Assembly (NCBI GenBank): GCA_013360215.1
Contig: JABWCP010000018.1
Span: 1-62,016 of the forward strand
Length of the DNA stretch: 62,016 nucleotides
Direction of reading: 5' to 3'
Source of the DNA: a bacterium
Lineage (GTDB): Bacteria; CLD3; SB21
In this document: positions 1-9,242 of the stretch, one piece after another
Position numbering within the stretch: position 1 is the first letter of the stretch
Layout: every line of letters starts with the position of its first letter
The notes under the pieces: model-generated
Seen by the model: the letters and a program-made list of their open reading frames with translations, nothing else
What the model was told of the DNA's origin: nothing
The model's database searches: none
Translations under genes and position numbers: made by a program

Positions 1-99
1 TCTCGTCGAATGTTCTCGTCGAATGTTCTCGTCGAATGTTCTCGTCGAATGTTCTCGTCGAATGTTCTCGTCGAATGTTCTCGTCGAATGTTCTCGTCG
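1..99. repeat. 13-bp tandem repeat, about 7.6 copies
   Basis: The unit TCTCGTCGAATGT is repeated head to tail seven times without error, followed by an 8-base partial copy. The unit length is not a multiple of three, so each added or lost copy would shift any reading frame crossing it. The tract starts at the first base of the window, so its true length is unknown. The frame of the AraC-like gene that follows is closed by a TAA at 100-102, so the repeat is probably untranslated leader or degraded coding sequence. Confidence 0.95.
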
Positions 100-117: not shown

Positions 118-447
118 TTGGAAAAAGAGGGAACGAGAGGTGTCACAGAATTGGCCGAGAGCGCATGTATGTGCGAACGCCACCTCCGCCGAAAAACGAA
201 AGAAAAATTCGGCTTACCACCGCACCGGCTTTTAGAGAATATACGATTGGCCAAAGCTCTCGAAGCCATGCATGAACAACCTGAAGTCACGTTGCTTCAA
301 ATCAGTCAAATTGCCGGATATACATCATACAAAACATTTTATCAGGCTTTTACGCGGAGATTCAAAGTGGCACCGTCGGAAGCGATATGGCGTATAAAAC
401 AAAATCCAAGAATTATGGCAGATGCCTTTCAGAGAAAATTGATATAA
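118..447 (+). CDS. AraC-family DNA-binding domain protein, possibly truncated
   Basis: The 109 residues are almost exactly one AraC/XylS-type domain with two helix-turn-helix motifs. The first covers about residues 9-30 (VTELAESACMCERHLRRKTK). The second covers about 60-85, with the family pattern ISQIAGYTSYKTFYQAFTRRF. No sensor, receiver or sugar-binding domain is attached, although members of this family normally carry one at the N terminus. The TTG start is preceded by a strong GGAGGAGG at 103-110, so a short stand-alone protein could be made. The other reading is that this is the 3' remnant of a longer regulator (for example a receiver-AraC or hybrid sensor), cut off by the 13-bp repeat. 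It lies 188 bp upstream of the RiPP locus in the same direction, so a regulatory link is possible but not shown. Confidence 0.7.
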   Translation: MEKEGTRGVTELAESACMCERHLRRKTKEKFGLPPHRLLENIRLAKALEAMHEQPEVTLLQISQIAGYTSYKTFYQAFTRRFKVAPSEAIWRIKQNPRIMADAFQRKLI

Positions 448-635
448 GAAAGTCGACCAATTAATGAATGTCAAACAGGTTTTCATTTAAGGCAAAATAG
501 CACATTTAGCGACTACCATTTAAATATATTGTTAAACAAAAATAAGCGATACAGCTTTAGCGAAAACAATTAAAAAACCATTTTTTTATTAATACAAAAG
601 CTTATTTCAAATTCTATACTAAGGAAGGGGACAAC
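448..635 (+). promoter_or_regulatory. AT-rich leader of the RiPP locus
   Basis: This 188-bp AT-rich gap is the likely promoter region of the peptide cassette. It ends in an unusually strong ribosome binding site (AAGGAAGGGG, 622-631) just before the ATG at 636. At 541-551 it holds AATAAGCGATA, which recurs exactly in both arms of the inverted repeat that flanks the precursor gene. That makes it a candidate operator. No convincing -35/-10 pair or Bacteroidetes-type -33/-7 pair was found. Confidence 0.4.
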
Positions 636-1958
636 ATGAAAATGTTCAGCCTGTTACTAACATTGGTTTTTTTACTATTGAATTGTAAAGTTATAGCACA
701 AAGTCAAACTATAGAACAAGGCGCCATGGTAGACCTGATAAATCCTAGATCATTGGATCATCCTATTTATTTATCGTTCAAAGATGGAGACTATCTTACA
801 TCAATTATTGAATGTGATAAATGGGATTCTGTTTATAGAGGCACAAATTCAGAAGATGCCTTTATGGAACAAGAAGCTTACTACAATTCTTTTGTAGGTA
901 ATTACAAAAAAGCACTTAACAATTTCGACAAAATTAATGCCAAATGGATTAAGCAGCTCGATACCACTAACTTTCTTGACAGATCTTTTTTGTCAGCAAA
1001 AAAGCTGGATGCTGTAAATGAGATTATAAGAGAAGCGCAAAACCGCCAAATTACGATTGTTAATGAAGCACATCATGTACCGCAGCATCGTGCCTTCATA
1101 TCTTCACTACTTAAGCCTTTATATGAATCCGGCTATCGTTACTTTGCAACAGAAATGCTAACAGATAATATTGATACGGTAAAGAAGAACGGTTACGTCA
1201 GCTTTCAACAGAACGGATTTTATCCGAATGAACCCGTATATGCTAATTTAATTCGAAAGGCAATTGAAATTGGATATACTTTAGTCGGTTACGAAGATAC
1301 TGTGAACTGTGATTTTGACCCAGTAAATCCATTTCGCTGTTTAAATCAGCGAGAACAAAACCAAGCTAAAAACATAGCCAATCTAATCTTAAAGAATAAT
1401 TCAAATGCAAAAATCCTTATACATTGTGGATACCAACATGCAGATGAAGTTGAACATCAATCACCTAAGGTCAAAACAATGGCAGCGCATTTAAAAGAGT
1501 TAAGCAATACCGATCCCTTGACCATTGATCAAACGGTTATGAGTGAACACAGCTTAGTTAATTTTGAAAACTCATATTACAGATATGTTCAAGATAGTTT
1601 AAAAATAAATTCACCAGCAATATTTAAAACGATTAATGGTTATTGGGTTGATGACACTAAACGCGGGTTTGTCGACATGCAAGTTTTTCATCCAAGGACA
1701 AACTATATAAACGGTAGACCAAACTGGCTCATTAAAGAAAATTACATCCTCACTTTACCGGATTTTGATATTTCCTCTTTTCCTTTTTTGGTACAAGCAT
1801 TTAAAAAGTCTGATAAAACTAATGCAATTCCAATGGATCAGTTTTTAGTTGATTCAAGGAAAGAAAAAATTGCCGTAGCAGTACCCAAAGGGTATTATCG
1901 AATACGCATGATTAACAGCAAAGGCACTATTCATGAATTCGAAGTGAAAAATCCTTAG
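636..1958 (+). CDS. Secreted erythromycin-esterase/ChaN-like protein, RiPP-locus copy 1
   Basis: The protein has 440 residues and a signal peptide (hydrophobic residues 3-17, cleavage near 21-23), so it acts outside the cytoplasm. The core resembles the EreA/ChaN/TIKI fold. NEAHH at 143-147 matches the Glu-x-x-His region of that fold, ATEM near 171-174 supplies a second acidic residue, and LIHCGYQH at 261-268 supplies a C-terminal histidine motif. The N-terminal 110 residues have no recognised domain. A clear paralogue lies at 4453-5754 with the same motifs in the same order, and the pair brackets the precursor and both maturases. Possible roles are cleaving an ester in the product, immunity, or a scaffold or receptor role; none can be chosen from sequence. 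The gene has a strong Shine-Dalgarno and is much richer in AT than the copy-2 gene. Confidence 0.75.
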   Translation: MKMFSLLLTLVFLLLNCKVIAQSQTIEQGAMVDLINPRSLDHPIYLSFKDGDYLTSIIECDKWDSVYRGTNSEDAFMEQEAYYNSFVGNYKKALNNFDKINAKWIKQLDTTNFLDRSFLSAKKLDAVNEIIREAQNRQITIVNEAHHVPQHRAFISSLLKPLYESGYRYFATEMLTDNIDTVKKNGYVSFQQNGFYPNEPVYANLIRKAIEIGYTLVGYEDTVNCDFDPVNPFRCLNQREQNQAKNIANLILKNNSNAKILIHCGYQHADEVEHQSPKVKTMAAHLKELSNTDPLTIDQTVMSEHSLVNFENSYYRYVQDSLKINSPAIFKTINGYWVDDTKRGFVDMQVFHPRTNYINGRPNWLIKENYILTLPDFDISSFPFLVQAFKKSDKTNAIPMDQFLVDSRKEKIAVAVPKGYYRIRMINSKGTIHEFEVKNP

Positions 1959-1962
1959 ATAT

Positions 1963-2192
1963 TATCGCTTATTCTAAGTCTTCACAATTAAAACGGAGAC
2001 AAACATGAAAAACGAAAAAAAAGAACAGAAATTAGAACAATTCGAAGACTATAAACTCCAAAAGGCAAACTCAATTTCTGGCGGAAAAGCAAACACACTC
2101 TTGACAACACACGTGTGCCAAGGCGGTTGGGATGATATTACCGACTAATTAACTTAATCATGTAAAACCAAACTCTCTTAGAATAAGCGATA
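1963..2192. repeat. Perfect 16-bp inverted repeat flanking the precursor gene
   Basis: The left arm TATCGCTTATTCTAAG (1963-1978) is the exact reverse complement of the right arm CTTAGAATAAGCGATA (2177-2192). Between them lies only the 47-codon precursor gene with its ribosome binding site. The left arm begins 5 bp after the stop codon of copy 1. The right arm is followed by six T residues and then the ATG of the ATP-grasp gene at 2199. It could be an invertible segment, a pair of operators, or the base of a long RNA stem that isolates the precursor message. The sequence alone does not decide. Confidence 0.9.
2005..2148 (+). CDS. Grasp-with-spasm RiPP precursor peptide
   Basis: A short gene of 47 codons starts with ATG at 2005, after ACGGAGAC (1993-2000), and ends with TAA at 2146-2148. 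The leader (residues 1-27) is lysine- and glutamate-rich and ends SISGG, the double-glycine processing site used by C39 peptidase exporters such as the one encoded at 5757. The predicted core is the last 20 residues. It contains three threonines at 31, 34 and 35, one cysteine at 38, the sequence QGGWDD at 39-44 and a C-terminal ITD. Thr/Ser hydroxyls and Asp/Glu carboxylates are the groups that graspetide ligases join into ester rings, so Thr31, Thr34, Thr35 and Asp43, Asp44, Asp47 are the candidate ring atoms. The SPASM enzyme could act on the same peptide. Its place directly before the ATP-grasp gene fits the cassette. Confidence 0.85.
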   Translation: MKNEKKEQKLEQFEDYKLQKANSISGGKANTLLTTHVCQGGWDDITD

Positions 2193-2198
2193 TTTTTT

Positions 2199-3215
2199 AT
2201 GATTCTTATTTTCAGCATAGACGGAGGTGATGGGTCTACATCCCCAGTAATGGATTGGATAACTTATCTTGGCGCTGATAGAATTAGAGTGAACGTTGGA
2301 AATCTTAATAAAGATGTAAAATTTTCAATACATTTAGAACCAAACGGTATTACTACTGAATATCGAAATATGGATATAAATTTTTCATCCAAAGAAGTTA
2401 GTGCCGTATGGTTTAGACGAGAAGAGCGAATGTTCAGCGGGCTTGATACATCGTCAATATCCAACATTCGAATCAAAGAATCAGTTGATAGATTTTTGCA
2501 ACGAGAAGTAGAGGTCATTAAACAAGCTCTCTACTTACAATTTGACGATAAAGTATGGCTGTGTGATCCATCGTCGGGCAACCTTAACAAGATTAATGCT
2601 CTACAAAAAGCATGTGACGCAGGCATACGAATCCCAACCACTTTAATTACCAATAAGAGAACTGAATTGGAACGTTTTAAAAATAAACATAGAAAAATTA
2701 TATGCAAATGCTTTAGACAAGGAGGTGTTATTCAGTTAGACGGCTCAACATATGGAATGCATACTGAAATACTGTCTGATGATATTATCTCTAGTACCGA
2801 TGATGTTTTGTTTCCTGCTTTTGTACAAGAATACATTCCTAAAAAATACGAATTGAGGATTTTTTTTATTGAAAGTAACTTTTTTCCCATGGCAATTTTT
2901 TCACAAAACGACCCTCAAACATCAGTTGATTTTAGAAAATATAATTATTTAAAACCCAATCGAAATACTCCTTACATCTTACCTCACGAGATCCAAGAAA
3001 AATTAAAAACTCTTATGTTAAGCCTGAAACTCAATACGGGTTCAATTGATATGATCAGGGCAACCGACGGAAGTTACGTGTTTCTAGAGGTCAATCCTGG
3101 TGGGCAGTTTGGGATGGTCTCTGAACCGTGTAACTATTATTTAGAGAAACGAGTCGCTGAATATTTAATAAATCAATCAAAAAAATATTATGAGTCAAAA
3201 GTTTTTAGAAATTGA
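2199..3215 (+). CDS. gwsG: ATP-grasp peptide maturase of a grasp-with-spasm system
   Basis: This 338-residue protein belongs to the MvdC/MvdD-like ATP-grasp ligases that activate Asp/Glu side chains of a precursor and join them to Thr/Ser or Lys as macrocyclic esters or amides. Visible landmarks are the N-terminal pre-ATP-grasp segment with VWFRRE (70-75), the nucleotide-binding lysine region KIICKCF (166-172), the hinge and substrate region VQEYIPKKYELR (209-220), SIDMI (282-286), and the metal-binding LEVNPGGQF (297-304), where Glu and Asn would bind magnesium. Length and motif order match the family. It follows the precursor by 50 bp. No good Shine-Dalgarno precedes it, and the inverted-repeat arm ends only 6 bases before its ATG, so its translation may depend on that structure. 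The end overlaps the next small gene by 26 bp. Confidence 0.88.
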   Translation: MILIFSIDGGDGSTSPVMDWITYLGADRIRVNVGNLNKDVKFSIHLEPNGITTEYRNMDINFSSKEVSAVWFRREERMFSGLDTSSISNIRIKESVDRFLQREVEVIKQALYLQFDDKVWLCDPSSGNLNKINALQKACDAGIRIPTTLITNKRTELERFKNKHRKIICKCFRQGGVIQLDGSTYGMHTEILSDDIISSTDDVLFPAFVQEYIPKKYELRIFFIESNFFPMAIFSQNDPQTSVDFRKYNYLKPNRNTPYILPHEIQEKLKTLMLSLKLNTGSIDMIRATDGSYVFLEVNPGGQFGMVSEPCNYYLEKRVAEYLINQSKKYYESKVFRN

Positions 3216-3399
3216 TAAATTCATCAATGAGCCAACACTCATTTCAAAACTTCCAATAACATTTAAGCTACTTGAACAATCTACTTATGATCAATTAAGT
3301 ACTATCTCTCCGGTACGAAGTGATTTTCATCAAGAAAATAATTATGGAATAAAATTTTTTTATAAAACAATTTCAAAGCCATTTAACAATCCTTTTTAA
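3190..3399 (+). CDS. Small protein of unknown function inside the RiPP cassette
   Basis: I do not recognise this 69-residue protein. It has no signal peptide, no membrane segment, no cysteine and no double glycine, so it is not a second precursor of the same type. It begins inside the last codons of the ATP-grasp gene (26-bp overlap, different frame) and ends 10 bp before the SPASM gene, so a translated gene here would fill an otherwise empty gap of about 190 bp. There is no clear ribosome binding site, but the cassette as a whole uses weak ones. It could be a leader-binding helper or a chance reading frame in AT-rich DNA. Confidence 0.4.
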   Translation: MSQKFLEIDKFINEPTLISKLPITFKLLEQSTYDQLSTISPVRSDFHQENNYGIKFFYKTISKPFNNPF

Positions 3400-3409
3400 T
3401 TTTAAACTA

Positions 3410-4423
3410 ATGAGCGTTTTTTTTAAAATGCATGGCAACTGTATTCCGGTCAAAGGGGCAGTTAAAAGCGTAATATGCGATCTACAGCGTCATGAGCTAA
3501 AACAAATTTCAAATGACGTTTTCGAATTATTGGAGTTACTAAAGAATCACCCTGTAGAATATCTAAAGAATATTTACACTACTGAATTTATAGATGAATC
3601 GTTAGAGTTTTGTGTTACAAACGAATTCGGCTTCTACACTGAAGAGCCTTGGCTATTTCCAGAAATAGATTTGTCGTGGGATTCACCGTATCAAATATCA
3701 AATGCAATTATTGATTCAAGCAAACAATCAAAACACAACTATAAAAAAATAATTGACGAGTTAGATGAACTTGGATGTGAAACAATACAGTTTAGATTTT
3801 ACTTTTGCCCTCAATTATCTTTTCTAAACCACATACTTCTTCTTACGCAGGTAAGCAGGCTAAAGTCCATTCAACTTATATTAAAAGATGAAAATTTAAT
3901 AACTCAAAAAGAACTCGAAGAAGTATGCAGAGCTAACCCAAGAATTGAAAGCATTTTCTTACATTCATCACATCTTTTTAGGATCATTGATAAAATTGAA
4001 GGAAGTCACGCCAACATAATCTATTTTACTGATAGAATTGAATCGCATGATTCATGCGGAAATATTAATAAAATGTATTTTTGTATTAATATCCCAATGT
4101 TTACTGAAGCTCACAAACTGAATACATGTCTGAATCGCAAAATATCAATTGACGTTAATGGCGACATAAAGAATTGTCCTTCTATGACGCGTCACTTTGG
4201 AAACATACACAACACTTCATTACATAGTGCAATTATTCAAAAAGAATTTAAAGATTTATGGCTTATAAATAAGGATCAAATTGAAGTTTGTAAGATTTGT
4301 GAATTTAGATATGTTTGCACCGATTGCCGTGCTTTCATTACAGAACCAAGCAACATTTATTCAAAACCTTCAAAATGCACTTACGACCCTACTATTGGAA
4401 AGTGGTTAGATGAGACCCAATAA
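3410..4423 (+). CDS. gwsS: SPASM-domain peptide maturase of a grasp-with-spasm system
   Basis: This 337-residue partner of the ATP-grasp enzyme has three parts. Residues 1-50 (VKGAVKSVICDLQRHEL) resemble the small leader-binding start of these maturases. Residues 105-235 look like a TIM-barrel body. Residues 240-323 form a textbook SPASM domain with cysteines at 240, 256, 294, 297, 303, 306 and 323, including NCPS and CKICEFRYVCTDCR. The CX3CX2C motif that binds the S-adenosylmethionine-cleaving cluster of radical SAM enzymes is absent: the cysteines at 11, 23, 68, 123, 133 and 173 are not spaced that way. It therefore has the auxiliary cluster domain without the obvious catalytic one. It should act on the peptide encoded at 2005, but the chemistry is unknown. 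Confidence 0.85.
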   Translation: MSVFFKMHGNCIPVKGAVKSVICDLQRHELKQISNDVFELLELLKNHPVEYLKNIYTTEFIDESLEFCVTNEFGFYTEEPWLFPEIDLSWDSPYQISNAIIDSSKQSKHNYKKIIDELDELGCETIQFRFYFCPQLSFLNHILLLTQVSRLKSIQLILKDENLITQKELEEVCRANPRIESIFLHSSHLFRIIDKIEGSHANIIYFTDRIESHDSCGNINKMYFCINIPMFTEAHKLNTCLNRKISIDVNGDIKNCPSMTRHFGNIHNTSLHSAIIQKEFKDLWLINKDQIEVCKICEFRYVCTDCRAFITEPSNIYSKPSKCTYDPTIGKWLDETQ

Positions 4424-4452
4424 ATTTAAAATGGCTACATAAATGAGGAAAG

Positions 4453-5754
4453 ATGAAATCGTTTGTATTACTTGTCTTGCTTTCATTAAACCAAATATAT
4501 GCGCAGTATTATCTCCCACCGGCAATTATGGATTCGATTCGGGATATTGATAGGTCACTATCTTCTGATCGTAACTATATAGCCGCTTTGAATCGGTTAA
4601 ACCGAATTCATGCAATGCCACAATATGCCGGGCAGCCTATATTGTTTAATCATTGGGGCTTGTATAATTCTTTAGTGTCCGATTATTCGACGGCAATTGC
4701 TTTTTTTGACTCCATTGAGCTTCTTCGTCAGAGTCAACGCCGTACCACATCATTGCCGCCAACCGGTTTAACCTTTGATACAAGCCAAATACGCCCTTAT
4801 CCCGCGATGGAAACCATACTTCGCCTTGCAAAGAATAATTCCGTCGTAATGATCAATGAGCGTCATCACATGCCTATGCATCGGGCTTTTATTTTGGAAC
4901 TTCTGATTCGCCTCAAAGCGCTCGGATATACCCACTATGCTGCCGAAGGATTGCAAAATCACGATACAATCACAAGCCCTACAACATACCCTGCGATAGG
5001 AAAGACAGGATATTATGTAAATGAGCCTGTTTTTGCTGAATTGATACGAACTGCCATTCTGTTGGGTTATAAGATAGTCGCCTATGAAACAACAAGCTCG
5101 GCATCTCCCGAATCCGATCCTATCAAAAACCAAAATAAAAGGGAAAAAGAACAGGCTGAAAATTTGTACAATAAAACTTTGCTCCAAGACCCTCATTGTA
5201 AAGTTTTAGTCCATGTCGGTTATGGTCACAACGATAAAATGGGAGTTGGCGGCTGGATACCTATGGCATCCTACTTCAAAACTATAAGCGGCGTCGAGCC
5301 TTTGTCCATTGATCAAATTGAAATGTTTGAACACCGTGTTTCGGATTTTGAAAACCCCTATTACCGGTTTATTTCCGGCATGATTTCGCAGCCTACAGTT
5401 TTTATTGAAAAATCTTCGAGCACATCTTGGGCGCACCTGCAACCCGGCAACTTCGATTTGGGAATATGCCACCCCAAAGAAACTTATGTTCATGGACGCC
5501 CGACATGGAGAAACATAGCTAACCGCTATCGGATGTATGATCTACCCAACGAAAAAAGAACAATTACAAAAGGTTTACTCCAGGCGTTTTATCATGATGA
5601 GCCTACGGATGCTGTTCCAGCAGATCAGATCGTTTTTAATACCGGCACTTGGCAGACGATCCCGTGTTTATTATTAAGACCGGGGAAATATCGCTTCCGA
5701 TTAATAAGCGGGGAAAGCGATGCATCATCGGAATGGGTGGATACGGTCAAATAA
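4453..5754 (+). CDS. Secreted erythromycin-esterase/ChaN-like protein, RiPP-locus copy 2
   Basis: A 433-residue paralogue of the 636-1958 product, with a signal peptide cleaved near residue 17-18 (IYA-QYY). The shared motifs are NERHH at 135-139 (copy 1 has NEAHH), AAEG at 163-166, NEPVFAELI at 190-198, YET near 211, and LVHVGYGH at 252-259. All potential catalytic Glu and His residues are kept. The start has GAGGAAAG eight bases upstream. The stop codon lies 2 bp before the exporter ATG at 5757, so the gene is probably co-transcribed with the exporter. Its base composition is close to the chromosome, unlike copy 1. This suggests it belongs to an older exporter module, or that the AT-rich part was added later. 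Function remains open. Confidence 0.75.
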   Translation: MKSFVLLVLLSLNQIYAQYYLPPAIMDSIRDIDRSLSSDRNYIAALNRLNRIHAMPQYAGQPILFNHWGLYNSLVSDYSTAIAFFDSIELLRQSQRRTTSLPPTGLTFDTSQIRPYPAMETILRLAKNNSVVMINERHHMPMHRAFILELLIRLKALGYTHYAAEGLQNHDTITSPTTYPAIGKTGYYVNEPVFAELIRTAILLGYKIVAYETTSSASPESDPIKNQNKREKEQAENLYNKTLLQDPHCKVLVHVGYGHNDKMGVGGWIPMASYFKTISGVEPLSIDQIEMFEHRVSDFENPYYRFISGMISQPTVFIEKSSSTSWAHLQPGNFDLGICHPKETYVHGRPTWRNIANRYRMYDLPNEKRTITKGLLQAFYHDEPTDAVPADQIVFNTGTWQTIPCLLLRPGKYRFRLISGESDASSEWVDTVK

Positions 5755-5756
5755 TC

Positions 5757-7958
5757 ATGAGCCGCTTTCCGATATATCTTCAGCATGACAAAATGGACTG
5801 CGGCCCGGCTTGTATCCGTATGATAACAAGATTTTTTGGACGTACAGTCAGCCCGGAAAAATTACGCTGCATCACCTATGCCTCCAAGGGAGGCACCTCT
5901 CTTTTGAATTTGTCGGAGGCCGCAGAATCTTTGGGTTTTAGAACATTAGCGGTCAAGGTATCTCTTCAAAAGCTTCAGAAAGCGCCTCTGCCTTGTATTG
6001 TGTTTTGGCAGCAGCGTCACTTTATCGTAGTCTATAAGATCGGTCGAAGATATATCCATGTTGCCGATCCGGCGCACGGGATTCTAAAATACCGTCACGC
6101 AGACTTCGTATCCGGATGGTATAGTGACCGATCAAATGAAGGCGAGGGTCAGGGCATCGCCCTGCTCTTCGAACCAACGCCGGCATTTTACGAATCGGAG
6201 GATGATTTTGAAAAATCGTCGAATCCCAATAAAAAGGGCTTTGGCCTTTTATGGCCGTATTTGCGATCGCATCACAAGCTGATATTTCAGCTCGGTTTAG
6301 GTTTTTTATTGGGAAGCATATTACAGCTCATATTTCCGTTCCTCGCCCAATCTATGGTAGATATGGGTATTCACAATCAGAATATCGGCTTTGTATATAC
6401 CATACTGTTAGCGCAACTGATGCTTTTTCTCAGCCGAATAACAGTCGAAAGTATCCGGCGCTGGATACTCCTACATATCAGCACACGACTACAGGTTTCC
6501 CTCATATCCGATTTTCTGAGGAAGCTGATGCGTCTGCCTGTGGCTTTTTTTGATGCCAAACAAACCGGCGACCTGATGCAGCGCATAAATGACAGCCATC
6601 GGATAGAAAACTTTCTCACGGTGACTTCGCTCAGTTTCGTTTTTTCTATATTCAATCTTTTTATCTTCGGTGCCATTATACTTTTATACAGCCCTTTCAT
6701 ATTTCTGATTTTTACAACTTTCAGCGCCGTTTCGATAACATGGATCATGTTTTTTATGAAAAAAAGGCGTGATCTGGACTACAAACGGTTTGACCGTATG
6801 TCCGAAAACCAGCAGGGCATACTTCAGATCATCATGGGTATGCAGGAAATCAAACTCAGCGGATCGGAAAAGCAGAAACGATGGAAATGGGAATCGCTAC
6901 AGGCAAAACTTTTTACCATTAGCCGTAAAGCACTGGGTTTGGGGCAGGTGCAGGAGACCGGCACGCTTTTTATCAATGAATTTAAAAACATTATGATCAC
7001 ATTCATCGCGGCCAAAGAAACGATAGACGGACATATCACGCTCGGTGCGATGATGGCGATACAATATATGATCGGTCAACTGAATGCACCTATTGATCAG
7101 ATGATCGTTTTTTTGCAACACGCCCAAGATGCCAAACTGAGTTTAGAACGGTTATCAGAAATACATACCCACGACGATGAAGATCATGAAAGTGATAACA
7201 GCGCTCAACTTCCTCAGGAAAGATCCATAATGCTGGATCAGGTTTCATTTCAGTATGAGGGCCCTCACTCGCCCTACGCGCTCAAAGATGTCCACCTCCC
7301 GATACACGAAGGAAAAATAACGGCTATTGTCGGTGAAAGCGGTAGCGGCAAAACAACTTTACTTAAACTTTTGCTCAAGTTTTATATCCCGACAGAGGGA
7401 AAAATAAGCGTCGGATCGGACGCACTATCGCAGATCAGCGCTTCTTTTTGGCGTCAGCAGTGCGGCGTCGTCATGCAAGACGGGTATATTTTTTCGGATA
7501 CGATCGCTCACAATATCGCTCCTGCGGATGAAACCGTAGATCACCGAAGGTTGATACAAGCCGTCGAGGTTGCTAATATTCGGACATTCATTGAATCTTT
7601 ACCTCTGCGATACAATACTAAAATCGGAAATGACGGACTCGGACTCAGTCAGGGTCAAAAGCAACGCATTCTCATCGCCCGCGCAGTTTATAAAAATCCG
7701 CAATATTTGTTTTTTGATGAAGCTACCAGTGCGCTGGACGCTACTAACGAACGGATCATTATGTACAATCTTCAGCGTGTCTTCCAAAACAAAACCGTCG
7801 TCATCATCGCGCACCGACTCAGTACCGTGCGTAACGCCGATCAGATCATCGTACTGGAAAAAGGGAGTGTGGTGGAATCCGGCTCACATATTGAACTGAC
7901 CCAACAACGAGGCGTTTACTTCGAACTGGTACGCAACCAATTAGAACTCGGGAATTAG
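5757..7958 (+). CDS. Peptidase C39-containing ABC exporter
   Basis: This 733-residue protein cleaves double-glycine leaders and exports the peptide through the inner membrane. Residues 1-130 are a C39 peptidase with the catalytic triad Cys15 (MDCGPAC), His88 (RHFIVV) and Asp104 (VADPAHG). Residues of about 165-310 carry the membrane segments. The nucleotide-binding domain follows, with Walker A GESGSGKTT (near 525), signature LSQGQKQR (near 628), Walker B YLFFDEATSALD and the AHRLSTV switch. An in-frame start 108 bases earlier is possible but would add residues unrelated to the family and overlap the previous gene; the ATG at 5757 begins right at the peptidase domain. With the SISGG leader of the 47-aa peptide and the adjacent HlyD gene, it forms a type I-like secretion route. 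Confidence 0.93.
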   Translation: MSRFPIYLQHDKMDCGPACIRMITRFFGRTVSPEKLRCITYASKGGTSLLNLSEAAESLGFRTLAVKVSLQKLQKAPLPCIVFWQQRHFIVVYKIGRRYIHVADPAHGILKYRHADFVSGWYSDRSNEGEGQGIALLFEPTPAFYESEDDFEKSSNPNKKGFGLLWPYLRSHHKLIFQLGLGFLLGSILQLIFPFLAQSMVDMGIHNQNIGFVYTILLAQLMLFLSRITVESIRRWILLHISTRLQVSLISDFLRKLMRLPVAFFDAKQTGDLMQRINDSHRIENFLTVTSLSFVFSIFNLFIFGAIILLYSPFIFLIFTTFSAVSITWIMFFMKKRRDLDYKRFDRMSENQQGILQIIMGMQEIKLSGSEKQKRWKWESLQAKLFTISRKALGLGQVQETGTLFINEFKNIMITFIAAKETIDGHITLGAMMAIQYMIGQLNAPIDQMIVFLQHAQDAKLSLERLSEIHTHDDEDHESDNSAQLPQERSIMLDQVSFQYEGPHSPYALKDVHLPIHEGKITAIVGESGSGKTTLLKLLLKFYIPTEGKISVGSDALSQISASFWRQQCGVVMQDGYIFSDTIAHNIAPADETVDHRRLIQAVEVANIRTFIESLPLRYNTKIGNDGLGLSQGQKQRILIARAVYKNPQYLFFDEATSALDATNERIIMYNLQRVFQNKTVVIIAHRLSTVRNADQIIVLEKGSVVESGSHIELTQQRGVYFELVRNQLELGN

Positions 7959-7961
7959 AAG

Positions 7962-9242
7962 ATGCCCAACGATATTGAACCCCTTGAACGTATCCACAGC
8001 GACAGTTATGACGACGTGATGAATTACGAGCCCCATTGGTTGATACGGAGGGGTTCGTTCATATTGCTATTGGTCATTATTTTTTTGATTACCGTCAGCG
8101 GATATATACAATATCCGGATATATTACGCGGACAAATCACGCTGATCAGCGATCAGCCCACATTGGAGGTTGTCGCGCAATCCACAGGCCGCGTGAAATT
8201 GTTTGTCAAAGATCGCGACTCAGTCAAGGCCGGGCAACCTCTGGCTATGATCGAAAACCCTGCCGACTTTGCTTCCATTCAGAAATTGCGCTTATTTTTA
8301 GATTCTGCATCTTCTCAAAGCGATAGTTACGTAATGATAGATACAGCGTTACAACTCGGAGAACTGCAGACTTTTTATTCGGAAGTCATGCAGAATTATA
8401 AAGAATTAGCATCGTTTAAAGAGATCAATTATGAAGTAAAAAAAATCAACTCCATTCGGCAACAGATCAGCGCCTATTATAATTTGGGCGACCGACTGGA
8501 TGATCAGATCAAACTTCTGAAATTAGATGTGATGAAAGCCGAAAAAGATTTTGAAGTTAATAAATCTTTACATGAACGCGGACTACTTTCGGATGTCGAG
8601 CTCTCCGGTTATCAGTTCCAGTTAAACCAGAAGAAACTTGCGATGGAAGAAGCGCAGAAAGAAACTATCCGTAATTCGATCGTAGTTTCTGAAAATCTCA
8701 AAAACATATTAGACATGGAATTTCAAAATCAGGACAAAACGGCCCGGTACCTGATTCGCATACAGGAGTCACTGAGCAAACTCAAGAGCGAATTTTCAGC
8801 ATGGGAAAAAAAATACTGGATAACCAGTCCCATTAGCGGTGAAGCCATCTACAATGATGTATGGACAGACGACCGATTTGTAAAACTGGGCCAGGAGATC
8901 ATGACGATCAATCCGAAAACAAATCGTATTCGCGGACGCATAAAATATGAAGGCCCCGGACTCGGAAAAGTTGTTCCCGGACAGGAAGTTAAAATCAAAT
9001 TAGAAAATTATCCTTTTCAGGAATTCGGTATCGTATCGGGCGTCGTGGAAAATATTTCAGCCGTATCCAAAGATAAATCTGTAGTCATACAAATCACACT
9101 CCCTCAACAATTAAAAACATCTTTGGGTGCCTTATTGGAATACAAACAAGAAATGCAAGGAACATCCGAAATAATAACCGAAAACAGCACGTTGCTCGAA
9201 AGAGTTTTTCAACAACTGCGCCAAATCACCCAATATCAGTAA
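7962..9242 (+). CDS. HlyD-family secretion adaptor
   Basis: The 426-residue protein starts 3 bp after the exporter stop. It has a short cytoplasmic N terminus, one membrane anchor at about residues 28-46 (SFILLLVIIFLITVSGY), then a biotinyl-lipoyl-like half (LEVVAQSTGRVKLFVKDRDSVKAGQPLAMI). A long coiled-coil hairpin spans about 110-290, and the second half-motif and beta-barrel domain follow (ITSPISGEAIYN, LGQEIMTI, GKVVPGQEVKIKLENYP). Such adaptors bridge an ABC exporter to a TolC-type outer-membrane channel. No TolC homologue is encoded nearby, so the channel must be supplied from elsewhere. It completes the peptide export pair. Confidence 0.9.
   Translation: MPNDIEPLERIHSDSYDDVMNYEPHWLIRRGSFILLLVIIFLITVSGYIQYPDILRGQITLISDQPTLEVVAQSTGRVKLFVKDRDSVKAGQPLAMIENPADFASIQKLRLFLDSASSQSDSYVMIDTALQLGELQTFYSEVMQNYKELASFKEINYEVKKINSIRQQISAYYNLGDRLDDQIKLLKLDVMKAEKDFEVNKSLHERGLLSDVELSGYQFQLNQKKLAMEEAQKETIRNSIVVSENLKNILDMEFQNQDKTARYLIRIQESLSKLKSEFSAWEKKYWITSPISGEAIYNDVWTDDRFVKLGQEIMTINPKTNRIRGRIKYEGPGLGKVVPGQEVKIKLENYPFQEFGIVSGVVENISAVSKDKSVVIQITLPQQLKTSLGALLEYKQEMQGTSEIITENSTLLERVFQQLRQITQYQ

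What the first reader, a model, noticed from the sequence alone, without database searches (positions are those of the whole stretch)
448..9242. Compact RiPP locus of grasp-with-spasm type with two secreted esterase-fold paralogues
The order is esterase-like 1, precursor, ATP-grasp, 69-aa unknown, SPASM, esterase-like 2, C39 exporter, HlyD. The precursor, both maturases and a leader-cleaving exporter form a complete biosynthesis and export set (seen). What is unusual is the bracket of two secreted NExHH proteins from the EreA/ChaN group, which I do not know as a standard part of this system. An ester-cleaving fold beside an ester-forming graspetide ligase suggests product hydrolysis or immunity, which is inference.
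Basis: partly seen in the sequence, partly recalled or inferred. Interest (0 to 1): 0.85.

Follow-up and report, generated by a model that had tools for sequence, protein, structure and literature searches.

The report
Graspetide locus with two recruited TIKI hydrolases
A bacterium from a little-known phylum carries a known type of small-peptide factory (ATP-grasp plus SPASM) that includes two secreted hydrolase-like proteins of the Tiki/erythromycin-esterase superfamily; relatives of these proteins have joined similar factories several separate times, so they probably act on the exported peptide, but how is untested.

Summary
Gene order confirmed: este1, GG-leader precursor, ATP-grasp (TIGR04192), 69-aa gene, SPASM (TIGR04193), este2, C39 exporter, HlyD. 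The 69-aa "unknown" is the published LPL family. The two NExHH proteins match no family model alone, but with relatives they give a confident model (pLDDT 91.9) whose nearest solved folds are TIKI-superfamily enzymes (RRSP, HopBA1, Bcr135), and the 2-Glu/2-His catalytic set fits. They are not a standard part of this system: 0 of 17 Bacteroidota and 2 of 40 Chitinophagales loci have one, and most relatives sit alone. Yet the link is real: without the window, 14 genomes hold both, and 4 este genes lie within 10 kb of a grasp-with-spasm locus against 0.12 expected (P about 7e-6), at different operon positions and without clustering in trees. Other loci often carry a different secreted protein, DUF6624, which this genome lacks. 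The locus looks horizontally acquired. Best reading: secreted hydrolases acting on the exported peptide. Ester opening is possible, but one relative sits beside GG peptides in a genome without the ATP-grasp, which suggests a wider, perhaps peptidase, role. A 2022 paper already reported esterase-like genes in other graspetide branches and proposed modification or resistance.

The parts
118..447 (+). C-terminal part of an AraC-type regulator, truncated by the contig start; possible regulator of the locus
   Evidence: HTH_18 E=4.4e-16; 35% identical over 81 aa to the AraC-like gene before the este homologue in L009
636..1958 (+). este1: secreted TIKI-superfamily hydrolase-like protein (440 aa); E144, H146, E173, R239, H268 as candidate catalytic set
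   Evidence: N-terminus MKMFSLLLTLVFLLLNCKVIAQ reads as a signal peptide (sequence)
2005..2148 (+). precursor peptide (47 aa): leader ...SISGG, core KANTLLTTHVCQGGWDDITD
   Evidence: core fits the published signature TxxxTx(6-10)Dx(1-4)D; 3.5% of shuffled cores also fit
2199..3215 (+). grasp-with-spasm ATP-grasp ligase
   Evidence: TIGR04192 284.9 bits, E=8.5e-85
3190..3399 (+). LPL-family small auxiliary protein (69 aa)
   Evidence: HMM of ten LPL-position genes built without it, E=1.7e-5; family described in PMC8939145
3410..4423 (+). SPASM-domain maturase without a radical-SAM CxxxCxxC motif
   Evidence: TIGR04193 310.9 bits; motif absent
4453..5754 (+). este2: second secreted TIKI-superfamily hydrolase-like protein (433 aa); E136, H138, E165, R230, H259
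   Evidence: 34% identical to este1
5757..7958 (+). C39 peptidase-ABC exporter (start ATG at 5757, 2 bp after este2)
   Evidence: Peptidase_C39 E=9.9e-34, ABC_membrane, ABC_tran; sequence
7962..9242 (+). HlyD-family adaptor
   Evidence: HlyD_3 E=1.4e-9, TIGR01843 E=3.7e-23
1956..1978 (+). 5' arm of an inverted repeat that brackets the precursor gene; begins at the este1 stop codon
   Evidence: 87% complementary to 2177-2199; RNA fold z -4.05
2177..2199 (+). 3' arm of the inverted repeat, reaching the ATP-grasp start codon
   Evidence: duplex -24.7 kcal/mol against shuffles -8.6 +/- 2.5, 0 of 1000 as low

Best explanation
A horizontally acquired grasp-with-spasm graspetide locus. The ATP-grasp ligase, probably helped by LPL and followed by SPASM, cross-links the core KANTLLTTHVCQGGWDDITD, probably by Thr-to-Asp esters; C39 removes the leader after GG and exports the peptide with HlyD. 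The two este proteins are secreted TIKI-superfamily hydrolases made from the same operon. They fill an export-side accessory role that other loci of this type often fill with the secreted protein DUF6624, and most likely act outside the cytoplasm on the exported peptide: breaking down or opening product that stays in the producer's envelope (self-protection), or trimming it. Shown: gene content, fold class, conserved catalytic set, non-random linkage. Inferred: secretion, substrate, reaction, purpose.
For: System identity; LPL. este fold: pLDDT 91.9, PDB matches RRSP and HopBA1 at E 3e-4, Bcr135 lower, all TIKI members in PMC6254334; ChaN/Tiki Pfam in 26 of 45 relatives; catalytic set conserved in 44-45 of 45. 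Link: 4 observed against 0.12 expected, P about 7e-6 without the window; este inside intact operons L017, L207, L209 and beside L050; both este copies of this genome lie in this one operon. DUF6624 absent from this genome, present in 18/40 and 7/17 other loci, often in the slot before ATP-grasp that este takes in L207. Acquisition: GC3 0.16-0.29 for four genes against 0.48 +/- 0.06, absent from eight related genomes.
Against: Most este relatives are not near any peptide locus. L050 has both este and DUF6624. The linkage test is approximate. Secretion rests on the N-terminal sequence only. No substrate is known for any member of this family.
Confidence: 0.5

Rival explanations
1. Ester-specific immunity or off-switch: este1 and este2 open the macrolactone (Thr-Asp) bonds of the graspetide, as Ere enzymes open macrolide lactones.
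For: EreC set E47, H50, E78, R261, H289 (PMC7979712) fits este1 E144, H146/H147, E173, R239, H268 by order and spacing; ATP-grasp of this kind forms esters (literature); authors of PMC8939145 suggest resistance or modification for an Ere homologue in branch 4 loci.
Against: L009: este homologue beside two LKGG peptides in a genome without a TIGR04192 match, so no ester-forming partner there (short contig); RRSP of the same superfamily is a peptidase; most grasp-with-spasm loci have no este; ester bonds in this product are not shown.
Confidence: 0.2
2. Peptidase role: este1 and este2 cleave peptide bonds of exported GG peptides, as trimming proteases or to degrade strays.
For: Closest solved folds are RRSP, an endopeptidase with Glu-x-His, Glu, His; the E-x-H form is what all peptide-linked members with an intact N-terminus keep, while the second His is lost in L207 and L209; L009 context; two divergent copies could have different cut sites.
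Against: Fold search TM-scores are low over the whole chain (0.25-0.31); the C39 domain already removes the leader.
Confidence: 0.22
3. Chance neighbours or hitchhikers: este genes have a general envelope role and were carried along with the locus.
For: More than 90% of este genes found are away from peptide loci; 0 of 20 este genes in 395 Bacteroidota genomes were linked to any of the 17 grasp-with-spasm loci.
Against: 4 linked against 0.12 expected; both copies of this genome inside one operon, este2 with a 2-bp gap to the C39 gene; este sits between maturase genes in L209 and 4 bp before ATP-grasp in L207.
Confidence: 0.08

Closest known systems
Grasp-with-spasm loci (TIGR04192 + TIGR04193) = graspetide ATP-grasp branch 5 of Makarova et al. 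2022 (PMC8939145)
   Same: GG-leader precursor, ATP-grasp, LPL, SPASM, C39-ABC, HlyD in one operon
   Different: Carries two TIKI-superfamily proteins and no DUF6624; lies outside Bacteroidota, in a small phylum where no other held genome has the system
Erythromycin-esterase-related cluster 575 in graspetide branch 4 loci, and Tiki/TraB genes in branch 2 (PMC8939145)
   Same: A TIKI-superfamily hydrolase beside a graspetide ATP-grasp; resistance or modification proposed by the authors
   Different: Other ATP-grasp branches without this SPASM/LPL set; whether cluster 575 is the same este family could not be tested (supplements not available)
TIKI superfamily enzymes: Ere esterases (EreC), Bcr135, RRSP, ChaN, HopBA1
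   Same: Fold matches to RRSP, HopBA1 and Bcr135; Glu-x-His, Glu, Arg, His in the same order and similar spacing
   Different: No sequence match to PF05139; este has a helical, TPR-like N-terminal part and a C-terminal beta domain; activity unknown
DUF6624 (PF20329), secreted accessory of grasp-with-spasm loci (probably cluster 23 of PMC8939145)
   Same: Secreted accessory gene of the same operon type; can take the same slot before ATP-grasp as este in L207
   Different: Unrelated sequence; far more frequent (18/40 and 7/17 loci)

Membership tests
grasp-with-spasm graspetide locus | ATP-grasp over the TIGR04192 cut-off | tested here: met
   284.9 bits, cut-off 230
grasp-with-spasm graspetide locus | SPASM protein over the TIGR04193 cut-off next to it | tested here: met
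   310.9 bits, cut-off 175
grasp-with-spasm graspetide locus | GG-leader precursor with Thr/Ser and Asp/Glu in the core, upstream of ATP-grasp | tested here: met
   47-aa ORF 2005-2148
grasp-with-spasm graspetide locus | LPL small gene directly upstream of SPASM | tested here: met
   E=1.7e-5 with an independent HMM
grasp-with-spasm graspetide locus | secreted cluster 23 protein (inferred to be DUF6624), in almost all branch 5 loci | tested here: not met
   DUF6624 absent from the genome; not strictly defining, since many TIGR04192 loci lack a detectable one
grasp-with-spasm graspetide locus | cross-linked (dehydrated) product | not testable with these tools
   needs mass spectrometry
TIKI superfamily | TIKI fold | tested here: met
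   pLDDT 91.9 model; best PDB matches RRSP, HopBA1, then Bcr135; E 3e-4 to 4e-2, low whole-chain TM
TIKI superfamily | 2Glu/2His catalytic set | tested here: met
   E144-x-H146, E173, H268 conserved in 44-45 of 45; matches RRSP E3900-x-H3902, E3930, H4030
erythromycin esterase family (PF05139) | match to PF05139 | tested here: not met
   no match in the genome or in either protein; one of 45 relatives at E 0.089
erythromycin esterase family (PF05139) | ester hydrolysis | not testable with these tools
   needs an enzyme assay
radical SAM/SPASM maturase | CxxxCxxC motif | tested here: not met
   absent here and in all 62 homologues tested

The most novel reading that the evidence does not exclude
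A dedicated extracellular ring-opening system: secreted TIKI hydrolases, recruited independently to several graspetide operons, that cut the ester bonds the operon's own ATP-grasp ligase makes, as producer immunity or signal termination, with two divergent copies here perhaps specific for different bonds.
Probability: 0.17. Interest if true: 0.72.

Novelty: new variant of a known kind. Interest (0 to 1): 0.5.

Why it matters
Self-protection against graspetides and the role of their secreted accessory proteins appear unresolved: the papers read call the esterase homologue and the DUF6624/cluster 23 proteins of unclear function. Repeated recruitment of one enzyme superfamily with known chemistry makes this testable with one small operon, and este and DUF6624 may mark the same unknown step.

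Tried and rejected
Erythro_esteras (PF05139) as the family: no hit. PDB by sequence, with este1 and with the 45-row profile: no hit. PHROGs: nothing useful. Rfam in the first 10 kb: nothing. AATAAGCGATA as a genome-wide regulon box: the five copies outside the locus lie inside unrelated genes with no shared flanks. The precursor-bracketing helix as a general feature of this operon type: not seen in 17 other precursor/ATP-grasp pairs (one at z -3.4). Consensus promoters: no more than in shuffles. A single origin of peptide-linked este proteins: not supported, though tree backbones are weak. TIKI or esterase families among 42 other accessory genes of grasp-with-spasm loci: none among the 25 families shown of 64.

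Full report
OBSERVATION. The ATP-grasp and SPASM proteins pass the curated cut-offs of TIGR04192 and TIGR04193, the two halves of the grasp-with-spasm system; exporter and adaptor are C39-ABC and HlyD proteins. Spacing is tight: ATP-grasp and the 69-aa ORF overlap by 26 bp, este2 starts 29 bp after SPASM, and the C39 gene starts 2 bp after este2. The contig begins at window position 1 with a 13-bp tandem repeat, then the tail of an AraC-type regulator, so the 5' end of the locus may be incomplete.

THE 69-AA ORF. A small gene lies between ATP-grasp and SPASM in most loci fetched. An HMM built from ten of them finds the window's ORF at E=1.7e-5. This is the LPL family of PMC8939145, encoded directly upstream of SPASM and proposed there to be a chaperone-like auxiliary.

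THE TWO ESTE PROTEINS. They are 34% identical and match no Pfam, NCBIfam or PDB entry of note by sequence. A scan of genome contigs with three of them gave 46 loci from Bacteroidota, Ignavibacteriota, Acidobacteriota, Planctomycetota, Gemmatimonadota, Elusimicrobiota and Pseudomonadota. In a 45-member alignment N143, E144, H146, H147, R152, E173, R239 and H268 are invariant or nearly so. The model is confident, pLDDT 91.9. Its best PDB matches are RRSP and HopBA1, then Bcr135, all named TIKI-superfamily members in PMC6254334; whole-chain TM-scores are low, so this supports the core fold only. 26 of 45 members hit the ChaN/Tiki Pfam model weakly. The RRSP set Glu3900-x-His3902, Glu3930, His4030 and the EreC set E47, H50, E78, R261, H289 match by order and approximate spacing. 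In the peptide-linked members of L207 and L209 the second His is lost, but E-x-H, Glu, Arg and the last His remain, so H146 is the likelier catalytic His. The superfamily holds esterases and an endopeptidase, so the fold does not say which bond is cut.

IS IT A STANDARD PART? In 395 Bacteroidota genomes, 13 had TIGR04192 (17 loci) and 19 had este (20 genes); 2 had both and none were linked. In 398 genomes of the order of G045, 32 had TIGR04192 and 66 had este. Of 40 loci read out, 2 contained este: L207, este just before ATP-grasp, then LPL, SPASM, C39, HlyD; and L209, este between ATP-grasp and SPASM. The contig scan had already given L017 (precursor, ATP-grasp, SPASM, C39, HlyD, este) and L050/L109 (este fragment at the contig end, DUF6624, precursors, ATP-grasp, LPL, SPASM). 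Leaving out the window genome, 14 genomes with both hold 19 este genes; 0.12 within 10 kb are expected by chance and 4 are seen, Poisson P about 7e-6. The test is approximate: genome sizes and locus counts are rounded, and este detection scored only the best few candidates per genome. Most este genes are solitary.

INDEPENDENT RECRUITMENT. Linked este genes sit at different operon positions and do not cluster in two trees; well-supported branches force at least 3 changes, and the best trees need one per member. este1 and este2 are not shown to be sisters. Backbone support is weak, so the number of recruitments is uncertain.

DUF6624. PMC8939145 describes a secreted "cluster 23" protein in almost all branch 5 loci. 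In the loci read here a corresponding secreted gene is often DUF6624; that the two are the same is my inference. DUF6624 is absent from the window's genome. In L207 este takes the slot before ATP-grasp that DUF6624 takes in L214 and L215. I infer that este fills the same accessory role; L050, which has both, shows that replacement is not strict.

ORIGIN. este1, precursor, ATP-grasp, LPL and SPASM have GC 0.26-0.38 against 0.47 +/- 0.04 for other long ORFs of the window; este2, C39 and HlyD are at 0.41-0.45. TIGR04193 occurs in no other of the nine genomes of the phylum. The locus was probably acquired, possibly from two sources.

A POINT AGAINST THE ESTER STORY. In L009, from the same taxonomic family, an AraC-like gene, an este homologue, two Cys-rich LKGG peptides and a thioredoxin-like gene lie in a row. 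That genome has no TIGR04192 match, and its whole-genome copy G003 no TIGR04193 match. The contig is only 4,775 bp. If real, este accompanies GG-leader peptides without the ester-forming enzyme, which favours a broader peptide-directed role.

LITERATURE. PMC8939145 reports an erythromycin-esterase-related gene (cluster 575) in gammaproteobacterial branch 4 loci and Tiki/TraB in branch 2, and suggests modification or resistance. PMC13097080 notes SPASM in all group 14 graspetides and DUF6624 as a possible undiscovered enzyme class. In the held library only PMC8939145 mentions both erythromycin esterase and graspetides. Supplements were not available.

SECONDARY FINDING. A 23-nt inverted repeat (1956-1978 and 2177-2199) brackets the precursor gene. 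Its 5' arm begins at the este1 stop codon and its 3' arm reaches the ATP-grasp start codon. RNA 1940-2215 folds with z -4.05, 0 of 200 shuffles as stable; the two intergenic stretches pair at -24.7 kcal/mol against -8.6 +/- 2.5. Translation of este1 to its stop could open the helix and couple ATP-grasp synthesis to este1. This is inference from one sequence, and the helix is not general in the operon type.

VERDICT. A real new variant of a known system. The association is statistically supported, the chemistry is open, and the hydrolysis/immunity idea is plausible but neither new nor shown.

Noticed in passing
window 1956-1978, 2177-2199, and core copy 541-551: Inverted repeat bracketing the precursor gene, forming a strong predicted RNA helix over the ATP-grasp start codon; a third exact AATAAGCGATA lies in the leader of este1.
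   Followed up: partly
window 1-99: 13-bp tandem repeat TCTCGTCGAATGT at the contig start, possibly an assembly edge; the AraC-type gene after it is cut.
   Followed up: no
L009:1939-4775: AraC-like gene, este homologue, two Cys-rich LKGG peptides and a thioredoxin-like gene in a row, in a genome without a TIGR04192 match.
   Followed up: partly
L038:6871-12028: Four tandem este paralogues at a chromosome-record end in a Pseudohongiella MAG, with no peptide genes seen.
   Followed up: no
window 3410-4423 and homologues: TIGR04193 SPASM proteins lack a CxxxCxxC radical-SAM motif in all 62 tested, although papers describe them as radical SAM enzymes.
   Followed up: partly
L017:983-2594: Sequence upstream of the precursor repeats the start of the ATP-grasp gene (MILVLSQESYET at 1403), a degraded partial duplication of the locus.
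   Followed up: no
L109, L203; genomes G985, G989, G698: Several genomes carry three to five grasp-with-spasm loci with different precursors, some side by side.
   Followed up: no
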